Part shown: piece after piece, positions 56,766 through 63,262 of the stretch | Layout of the letters: each line of letters opens with the position of its first letter | Position numbering within the stretch: the stretch's first letter is position 1 | DNA from: Siphonodentalium dalli | Taxonomy: Eukaryota > Mollusca > Scaphopoda > Gadilida > Siphonodentaliidae | Direction of reading: 5' to 3' | Length of the DNA stretch: 64,000 nt | Assembly (NCBI GenBank): GCA_032622095.1 | Contig: CP136067.1 | Span: 201,558,181 to 201,622,180 of the forward strand | Translations under genes and position numbers: made by a program | Notes under the pieces: generated by a model | The model's database searches: none | What the model saw: only the letters and a program-made list of their open reading frames with translations | What the model was told of the DNA's origin: nothing

Positions 56766-57063
56766 ATGTTCCCAAATGTGATATCGCCGACACCTTTGTA
56801 CCAGAACATGTTCAGGGCAATTCCGATGAACCCTCAAACAATCGTTTCCAGCCCGTCGTCTGCTTTCATCATGGAGAATTTGATGCGGGACAGAAATGCG
56901 TCACTTCTGGCACGGACTTTACCTGGAAATCCAGCGTTGATCGCGCACAAATCATCGGAGTTACAAACTGTTACCGCGAATAACACAAACACTACACCTT
57001 ATTTGAAATTTGGTGTCAATGCTATTCTTGGGAATGACATGAAATCAAGAAAATCGCCAAACA
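56766..57063 (+). CDS. dbx: DBX-type homeobox protein, exon 1 (N-terminus)
   Basis: The ATG at 56766 (A at -3) opens a 298-nt coding exon ending at a consensus donor (GTAAGT, 57064-57069) after one base of codon 100. The product starts MFPNVISPTPLYQNMFR, matching the MFP...P..Y..LLR start of DBX1/DBX2. It has an Engrailed-homology-1-type Groucho-binding motif (FIMENLM, residues 34-40) where vertebrate DBX has SFLVEDL, and the near-invariant DBX motif YLKFGVNAIL (residues 79-88). DBX proteins are nuclear homeodomain repressors that pattern interneuron progenitors. The frame continues open to 57143 past the donor but loses all similarity. Exon 2 at 61226 joins in phase. The homeodomain exons are outside the window. 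Confidence 0.92.
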
Positions 57064-61225: not shown

Positions 61226-61411
61226 GCGACTCCAGACCGAGCAGTACGACAAACAGTCCTCCACTCATGGCCTGCTTTCCGACGACCAGCTGCTCTAAAA
61301 CATGTCCGTTCGGTTCACACAACTCACTCAACTGTTTATCGTGCGCCCCGAGACAACCATCCCTGTATGAGAACCCATTCGCCGGCATGGCGAGACATCC
61401 ATACTTCAATG
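61226..61411 (+). CDS. dbx: DBX-type homeobox protein, exon 2
   Basis: The exon lies between TATTACAG (acceptor) and G|GTAAGT (donor, GT at 61412). Its first two bases complete the codon split by exon 1 (giving Ser), and the frame is open for all 186 nt. It encodes a Ser/Thr/Pro-rich then Cys-rich stretch (MACFPTTSCSKTCPFG, LNCLSCAPR) and ends SLYENPFAGMARHPYFNG. The closing HPYFNG corresponds to the F-P-Y-F-E-G that precedes the homeodomain in vertebrate DBX1. Exon length 186 nt leaves phase 1 for the next exon, which is not in the window. Compared with vertebrate DBX the Cys-rich segment is unusual. The last ~53 bases of the exon belong to a 68-bp unit repeated downstream. Assignment rests on phase, splice sites and the terminal motif. 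Confidence 0.8.
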
Positions 61412-61690
61412 GTAAGTTACATGTACATCCCTTTAGGAGAACTCATTCGCCGCCATGGCGGGACATCCATACTTCAATGGTAAGTTACATGTACATCCCT
61501 GTATGAGAACTCATTCGCCGGCATGGCGAGACATCCATACTTCAATGGTAGGTTACATGTACATCCATGGTCCCTGTATGAGAACCTATTAGCCGACATG
61601 GTCAGACATCTATATATACTTCAATGGTAAGTTACACGAGAACCCATTCGCCGGCATGGCGATACATCCATACTTTAATGGTAAGATACT
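61359..61690 (+). repeat. 68-bp tandem repeat of exon end plus splice donor, 5 copies
   Basis: Units begin at 61359, 61427, 61495 and 61563 and a truncated fifth at about 61635. Each holds ATCCCTGTATGAGAACYCAT, TCGCCGGCATGGCGAGACAT, CCATACTTCAATG and then a donor: GTAAGT (61412, 61480), GTAGGT (61548), GTAAGT (61627), GTAAGA (61681). Unit 1 is half exon 2 and half intron. Spacing between donors (68, 68, 79, 54) shifts the reading frame for donors 2, 3, 4 and 5 relative to donor 1. Read-through from donor 1 reaches a stop at about 61504-61506. Confidence 0.9.
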
Positions 61691-61694
61691 TGTT

Positions 61695-62815
61695 TTGACC
61701 TTCTGTCAAATTTCCAACTCAAATTGCGTATAGATGGCAAAAATGTCCACTTTAGGGGAGGGGACGTTTGTTGCACTTTCTGCGACATATATTGTGAGTC
61801 GAATTCACTTCTTTGAGCGTCGTAATAATTTTGCAACAGTATTAACGCAGTTTGGGCTAAGAGGACACCAACATGGAAACAAATCGGGAGCTTTTAAGCT
61901 TCGAGGGACATCTCAATGTGCATTTCCGATCATAACATGGCCATTTCAATATGAACTGATGATATGTAAACGCATATACTATAAGCAATAAATTAAGGGG
62001 CACAATGTAGCTTACAATATTTCAAGTTGGGCATTTGATCCGGTTTAAGGACGAGTGATGTTGGAAATGTGTGGTAGACACCCTTTCCACAGAAAGGGTC
62101 CACGACAAAGTTCATGCGTTCATCATATCTGGTTTCATCTGACAGAGGTGATGGGTTCTCCGTTTGCGAAAAAGGGGAATCGCATACACAATTTTGGAAC
62201 ACAAAGTAAAGATATTACTGTCATTTGATGATTTCTGGACACCATACATCCCAGACGACATGTGAGAGTCGTCACACTATCAGTTAAACATCTCACATGC
62301 ACTCGTTAGCTCATAAACAACCGGCACGTAATTACTATGGCAACCAGATACTCGTCAAATTATCATTCCATGCTTTAAACCGGGTATTAGAATACAAAGG
62401 GATCCTATTGTAGAAACATGTTGTCGGGTGTAATCTGGAAACCCAAGGTGGTTGTTTGGTCGGTGTATCTTTAATTAGTTCTCTGATTTACAACCTCGCG
62501 TGTGTCCTTACACGACACTAGATGTCCCCCGCCGCTAGGGGTCGCTTAAGCCGACGTCTATTTATAATATTATGTTTCATTGTATTTTCTGGATTATCCG
62601 ACTGACAATGATGGTGGTAGTTAGTTTCCACGTGAACAACTTCTATCTTTATCTATTAGTCGATAAATATCTACATATGTCATGGTTAATGGGAGATAAT
62701 TCACGATGAACGACGTCCGCTAGGTGGCTCAGGTTTCAGACGATGCATGTGGTTCTCGTGTGGAGATGAACGAATTCACCCACATGTCGGGTTTTCTCGA
62801 AGTACATATGTGCCC
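61695..62815. other. dbx intron 2, no exon recognised
   Basis: No homeodomain-like frame is visible. Open frames at 61734-61991 (plus) and 61993-62202 (minus) have no known motif. Confidence 0.4.
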
Positions 62816-62914: not shown

Positions 62915-63262
62915 CCCTTTACCCAACAAACCGGCCAAAACCGGCCAAATAAAGCTTCAACAGCCTAAAATATCTTCGGTCTGTCTCAATAGAACCATAC
63001 AAATATGGATATCATTGGAACCGGCTCCTAGACAACATTGTGATAGTTACAGTTATGCCCTGTGCTAATGCATTCTCTTATATATGCGAGCCGACCATAG
63101 GTCGCCTCGCATATATAAGAGAATGCATTGGCCTAAAAAAAATGTGTTAATGTGTTTAATGTGTTAAGCCAATGCATTCTCTTATATATGCGAGGCGACC
63201 TATGGTCGACTCGCATATATAAGAGAATGCATTGGCACAGGGCCCTTCTGTTGGGTAAAGGG
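62915..63262. mobile_element. piggyBac-like MITE, second copy (inverted)
   Basis: Flanked by TTAA (62911-62914, 63263-63266), with ends CCCTTTACCCAACA / TGTTGGGTAAAGGG. It is the reverse orientation of the 10192-10614 copy: its left third (GCTTCAACAGCCTAAAATAT, ATCTTCGGTCTGTCTCAATA) equals the complement of that copy's right third. It carries two full CTCTTATATATGCGAG palindromes. Confidence 0.88.

What the first reader, a model, noticed from the sequence alone, without database searches (positions are those of the whole stretch)
61359..61690. Five tandem copies of a dbx exon end with its 5' splice site
A 68-bp unit spanning the last ~53 bases of dbx exon 2 and the first ~15 bases of the intron is repeated five times, and every copy keeps an exon-like end (ACTTCAATG or ACTTTAATG) and a GT donor: GTAAGT, GTAAGT, GTAGGT, GTAAGT, GTAAGA. 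A developmental transcription factor thus has an array of competing donors. Donor 1 keeps phase 1; donors 2 and 3 would add 68 or 136 nt and change frame, so their use would truncate the protein before the homeodomain. This could be a splicing-level switch (productive versus non-productive isoforms) or a neutral minisatellite born at an exon edge. Retention of donor consensus in four or five copies is notable.
Basis: partly seen in the sequence, partly recalled or inferred. Interest (0 to 1): 0.82.

Follow-up and report, generated by a model that had tools for sequence, protein, structure and literature searches.

The report
Repeat array copying a splice site
In an animal dbx-like developmental gene, the end of one exon and its splice site have been copied five times (thirteen times in a second copy of the gene); this most likely arose as ordinary repeat expansion rather than as an evolved switch, but it is a ready natural test of how cells choose among equal splice sites.

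Summary
Five copies of the end of dbx exon 2 with its 5' splice site lie at 61358-61694; spacings are 68, 68, 79 and 54 bp, not five equal 68-bp units. Only donor 1 gives the 332-aa homeodomain protein. An inverted second dbx copy 1.4 Mb away (paralogue or unpurged allele, unresolved) has 13 units. Unit 1 keeps its peptide in both copies through three synonymous changes; 1 of 16 downstream units encodes it and 4 are out of frame. Tandem repeats cover 19% of the region, and 26 of 44 comparable ones differ in length between the copies. A second array sits at the exon 3 donor (27 bp; 3 versus 12 units), and a myosin gene shows a similar duplication. Best reading: a neutral, active minisatellite at an exon edge, of the kind reported for human IFI6. 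A splicing switch is unsupported but untested, since no RNA data were available. The open question is how donor 1 wins among equal downstream donors.

The parts
56766..57063 (+). dbx exon 1, coding part from the assumed ATG; ends at phase 1 with a GTAAGT donor; holds the LKFGVNAIL motif
   Evidence: start codon inferred, 5' end not determined
61226..61411 (+). dbx exon 2, 186 nt, phase 1-1, can be skipped in frame
61358..61694 (+). array of five exon-end + donor units (54-79 bp)
61412..61417 (+). donor 1 GTAAGT, the only one of the five that gives the full protein
61480..61485 (+). donor 2 GTAAGT, +68 nt, 260-aa product without homeodomain
61548..61553 (+). donor 3 GTAGGT, +136 nt, 192-aa product
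61627..61632 (+). donor 4 GTAAGT, +215 nt, 192-aa product
61681..61686 (+). donor 5 GTAAGA, +269 nt, 192-aa product

Best explanation
The array is an actively changing, essentially neutral minisatellite that began as a tandem duplication spanning the end of dbx exon 2 and the first 14 bases of intron 2. Because the duplicated piece held the donor, every unit inherited one. Purifying selection keeps unit 1 (coding exon end plus donor 1); the downstream units are intron sequence that gains and loses copies by slippage or unequal exchange. Shown: the anatomy, the frame consequences, the copy-number difference between two gene copies, and the lack of extra donor conservation. Supported by small numbers: coding constraint on unit 1. 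Inferred: that donor 1 is the main donor in vivo, and that downstream donors act at most as weak competitors giving a minority of non-productive transcripts.
For: Five versus 13 units in gene copies with 0.6-2.9% mismatches in collinear blocks across dbx. Donor columns 3 of 9 variable against 16 of 47 others, Fisher p = 1. B donors 2 and 4 are altered (ATT|GTAGGT; an inserted A before ATG|GTAGGT). The 14-aa unit-1 peptide is the same in A1 and B1 although exon 2 has three differences, all synonymous and all inside the repeated 54 bp; 1 of 16 downstream units encodes it and 4 of 16 are out of frame. Tandem repeats cover 18.9% of the 74 kb, and 26 of 44 comparable repeats differ in length by 5 bp or more between A and B. 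Other examples: the dbx exon 3 donor (27-bp unit, 3 versus 12) and a 67-bp exon-end + donor duplication in two myosin paralogues (2 of 24 loci).
Against: All 18 units keep GT and 13 of 18 keep GTAAGT, which selection could also explain. Two of the three dbx donors lie in arrays: about 9% by chance at the local repeat density but about 1% at the 5-6% density of the sampled myosin and kinesin loci (independence assumed). No such repeat was found near the match ends of 15 kinesin loci. Both dbx arrays are longer in copy B. No junction reads were available.
Confidence: 0.8

Rival explanations
1. Splicing switch: the array is kept by selection because use of donors 2-5 (2-13 in copy B) makes truncated products, so the choice of donor sets how much Dbx protein is made.
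For: Every later donor removes the homeodomain in both copies; 13 of 18 donors have the same predicted U1 pairing of -9.1 kcal/mol.
Against: Donor columns are no better conserved than others; unit number differs 5 versus 13; B donor 2 is weakened to -5.1 kcal/mol; nearby repeats vary in the same way.
Confidence: 0.1
2. Donor edges are a hot spot: something about donors or transcription seeds tandem duplications there, so such arrays are a general feature of this genome.
For: Two of three dbx donors and one myosin exon end lie in tandem duplications.
Against: 0 of 15 kinesin loci and only one shared event in 24 myosin loci; dbx lies in repeat-rich DNA. The genome-wide pattern count is not usable.
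Confidence: 0.07
3. Assembly error: the unit number, or the second copy itself, is an artefact of assembly.
For: An inverted near-copy is what a retained second haplotype can look like; divergence within the dbx region (0.6-2.9%) would fit alleles.
Against: Both copies hold the array with unit-specific variants, including the 79-bp and terminal GTAAGA units; no N runs in the pieces read. This would change what copy B is, not the array in the window.
Confidence: 0.03

Closest known systems
[quoted passage not shown]
   Same: A minisatellite whose repeat units carry splice donors. Seen only as a title in two reference lists and in one sentence of PMC4526556, which says that two downstream repeat units serve as donors and allow three mRNA species.
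   Different: There more than one donor is reported to be used. Here only donor 1 keeps the frame, the unit is 54-79 bp, and the gene is a homeobox gene with a second array at its next exon. The 1995 paper is not held, so its details were not checked.
Tandem duplication across an intron-exon boundary in potato RdRp (PMC4974935, abstract read)
   Same: A duplication crossing a splice boundary passes on splicing signals directly from the parental structure.
   Different: There one duplication over a 3' boundary made a new intron; here repeated copies of a 5' boundary make a series of donors, and no new intron is evident.
[quoted passage not shown]
   Same: Comparable donors close together, called a good natural model for donor choice.
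   Different: Two donors 33 nt apart with the intron-proximal one normally used; here 5 or 13 donors, of which the intron-distal one must be used for the full protein.

Membership tests
Donor-carrying minisatellite (IFI6/6-16 kind) | Tandem units span an exon-intron junction | tested here: met
   exon 2 end placed by reading frame, not by RNA
Donor-carrying minisatellite (IFI6/6-16 kind) | Units carry a 5' splice site consensus | tested here: met
   18 of 18 units have GT, 13 of 18 GTAAGT; U1 duplex -8.0 to -9.1 kcal/mol in 17 of 18, -5.1 in one (U1 sequence recalled)
Donor-carrying minisatellite (IFI6/6-16 kind) | Unit number varies | tested here: met
   5 versus 13 between two copies of the locus; variation between individuals not testable
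Donor-carrying minisatellite (IFI6/6-16 kind) | More than one unit is used as a donor in mRNA | not testable with these tools
   no RNA data
Dbx homeobox gene | Dbx-type homeodomain and upstream LKFGVNAIL-like motif | tested here: inconclusive
Regulated splicing switch | Donor sites conserved beyond the rest of the unit | tested here: not met
   3 of 9 against 16 of 47 variable columns
Regulated splicing switch | Alternative donor use that changes with stage or tissue | not testable with these tools
   no RNA data

The most novel reading that the evidence does not exclude
dbx carries two donor arrays (exon 2: 5 or 13 donors; exon 3: 3 or 12 in-frame donor-like sites), both longer in the second gene copy. 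Array length could set the share of productive Dbx transcripts, a repeat-length rheostat on a developmental regulator; and the first donor must win against many equal downstream ones through a rule that overrides the preference for the intron-proximal site.
Probability: 0.12. Interest if true: 0.7.

Novelty: new member of a known kind. Interest (0 to 1): 0.36.

Why it matters
[quoted passage not shown] Here two natural gene copies offer 5 and 13 donors, most of equal predicted strength, in otherwise similar sequence, with a second series of 3 and 12 at the next exon; coding constraint predicts that the most upstream donor wins. RNA-seq of this animal would measure donor choice against array length without making constructs. 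It also shows minisatellites sitting on two splice sites of a homeobox gene whose reading frame is intact in both copies.

Tried and rejected
Genome-wide census of donor arrays: three CAGGTAAGT at minisatellite spacing gave 807 + 684 matches against 147 + 138 for the pattern read backwards, but the rows listed all fall at five places on contig 1, mostly one large satellite, so the counts are not independent and I draw no conclusion from the excess.

Mollusc haemocyanin domain to place the species: no match, and no control genome rang, so uninformative; the species stays unknown.

Haplotype or true duplication: collinear blocks have 0.6-2.9% mismatches across dbx and up to about 5% elsewhere in the window; a piece at 201.30 Mb matches the mirrored place at 203.34 Mb at 90-95% but also another local copy at 201.13 Mb at 92-96%; the mirror centre shows only short inverted repeats; a piece at 201.80 Mb had no mirrored match among those listed, but only 40 of its 12474 candidates were scored. 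Not settled.

Sampling exon edges: one search read the minus-strand loci in the wrong orientation and was redone. Edges were placed only roughly, as -30 to +60 nt around the end of the family match, and some matches end inside an exon, so 2 of 24 and 0 of 15 are rough; TRF score cut-offs were 50 for myosin and 30 for kinesin.

Repeat-length comparison: lengths were inferred from flanking matches; 8 of 52 intervals could not be compared, and the row for the exon 2 array has one flank inside the array.

Papers: searches for natural donor arrays gave the IFI6 lead and no other example that I recognised from the rows listed (one search listed 10 of 31); searches on donor competition and boundary duplication gave PMC8724738 and PMC6002489 (passages) and PMC4974935 (abstract); one search on dbx and duplication in molluscs gave one listing, not read.

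Full report
Observation. The five copies are real. The basic unit is 68 bp (54 exonic, 14 intronic), but only the first three copies are 68 bp apart; the later steps are 79 and 54 bp. A genome search with 61300-61750 found two candidate places, this one and a second dbx copy.

Gene. The window carries exons 1 and 2 of a homeobox gene; exons 3 and 4 lie in the next 10 kb (L021). The joined coding sequence is 332 aa in four exons (298, 186, 200 and 315 nt of coding sequence; exon ends placed by frame and splice consensus, start codon assumed) with one Pfam domain, Homeodomain, E = 1e-21.

Consequences of donor choice. Donor 1 gives the full protein. Donor 2 gives a 260-aa frame-shifted product whose stop ends 31 nt into the last exon. 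Donors 3-5 give 192 aa with the stop 241-374 nt before the last junction, which by the recalled 50-55 nt rule makes decay likely. In the second copy donors 2-13 all give 168 aa, although 10 of those 12 offsets are multiples of three, because of a stop in unit 2. Skipping exon 2 is in frame (270 aa with homeodomain). Predicted pairing with U1 (recalled sequence) is -9.1 kcal/mol for 3 of 5 A donors and 10 of 13 B donors, donor 1 included, so strength does not single out donor 1.

Second copy. An inverted copy of the region lies about 1.4 Mb away (C7:203.00-203.08 Mb). Collinear blocks across dbx (window 55787 onward) have 0.6-2.9% mismatches, and up to about 5% elsewhere, with many repeat and insertion differences. 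The coding sequences differ at ten codons, five of them synonymous, and the homeodomain is identical. The mirrored homology reaches at least 201.300/203.339 Mb, at 90-95% identity there. Copy B is either a segmental duplicate or an unpurged allele. Close paralogues, some inverted, also appear for myosin and kinesin genes, so true duplication is plausible but not shown.

The second copy has 13 units: steps of 69, 68, 69 and 79 bp, then eight of 54 bp. Over all 18 units, 3 of 9 donor columns vary against 16 of 47 other columns (Fisher p = 1.0), and 29 of 48 nine-column windows are as conserved as the donor or more so. Without the two first units it is 3 of 9 against 15 of 47. Donors are not specially kept. 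What seems to be kept is the coding content of unit 1: three A/B differences fall in the repeated 54 bp of exon 2 and none in the other 132 bp (chance 0.024), all three are synonymous, and the peptide ENPFAGMARHPYFN is unchanged. Of 16 downstream units only B3 encodes that peptide; A4, B2, B4 and B5 are out of frame. The numbers are small.

Setting. TRF covers 18.9% of the 74 kb of copy A (52 merged intervals). Of these 52, 44 could be placed in B, and 26 of the 44 differ in length by at least 5 bp; without the two dbx arrays that is 24 of 42. Change in repeat length is common here.

Other exon-edge arrays. The exon 3 donor begins a 27-bp array (3 units in A, 12 in B; L021:7100-7183). Each step is 27 nt and the frame stays open through the array; use of a later site would insert multiples of nine residues into the homeodomain just before its VKIWFQN segment. 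These later sites are uneven: GTGAAA twice in A; GTGAGA six times and GTGATA five times in B. In 24 myosin-head loci, the best-scoring of 85 matches, two paralogues share a 67-bp tandem duplication of an exon end with its GTAGG donor. In 15 kinesin loci, the best of 123 matches, none was seen. Many of the myosin loci are close paralogues, and edges were placed only roughly. Repeat coverage there is 5-6%. Two of three dbx donors lying in arrays has chance about 0.09 at the local repeat density and about 0.01 at the lower one (independence assumed), so dbx is somewhat unusual but within reach of its repeat-rich setting.

Known kinds. The human IFI6 (6-16) minisatellite with multiple donor sites is the direct precedent (reference lists and one sentence; original not held). 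Tandem duplication over a splice boundary is described for potato RdRp (abstract). PMC6002489 (passages) says it is not known how the intron-proximal site is favoured among comparable donors; in dbx, coding constraint predicts that the intron-distal donor wins, which makes the gene a useful natural test. The searches for natural donor arrays gave no other example among the rows listed, in an open-licence library only.

Verdict. A neutral, active minisatellite at an exon edge is best supported (0.8). A splicing switch or rheostat is not excluded, because no RNA evidence was available.

Noticed in passing
L021:7100-7183 (C7:201629280-201629363) and C7:203007730-203008056: Second donor-edge minisatellite in the same gene: 27-bp unit at the exon 3 donor, 3 units in A and 12 in B, all steps in frame.
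   Followed up: yes
C7:201.30-201.63 Mb and C7:203.00-203.34 Mb: Inverted duplication holding two dbx genes with intact reading frames; paralogue or unpurged allele.
   Followed up: partly
L033 and L035 (C4:288.89 and C4:291.68 Mb): 67-bp tandem duplication of a myosin exon end with its donor, shared by two paralogues.
   Followed up: partly
window 62915-63262: About 348 bp that has no counterpart at the matching place of copy B; its ends TTAACCCTTTACCCAACA and TGTTGGGTAAAGGGTTAA are inverted repeats, like a small DNA transposon.
   Followed up: partly
C1:231.98-232.05 Mb: Large satellite of about 26-bp units, many carrying CAGGTAAGT.
   Followed up: no
C7:207.98 (-), C7:209.49 (+) and C7:209.79 (+) Mb: Kinesin-motor exons with equal or nearly equal scores at three places, one in the opposite orientation about 1.5 Mb away.
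   Followed up: no
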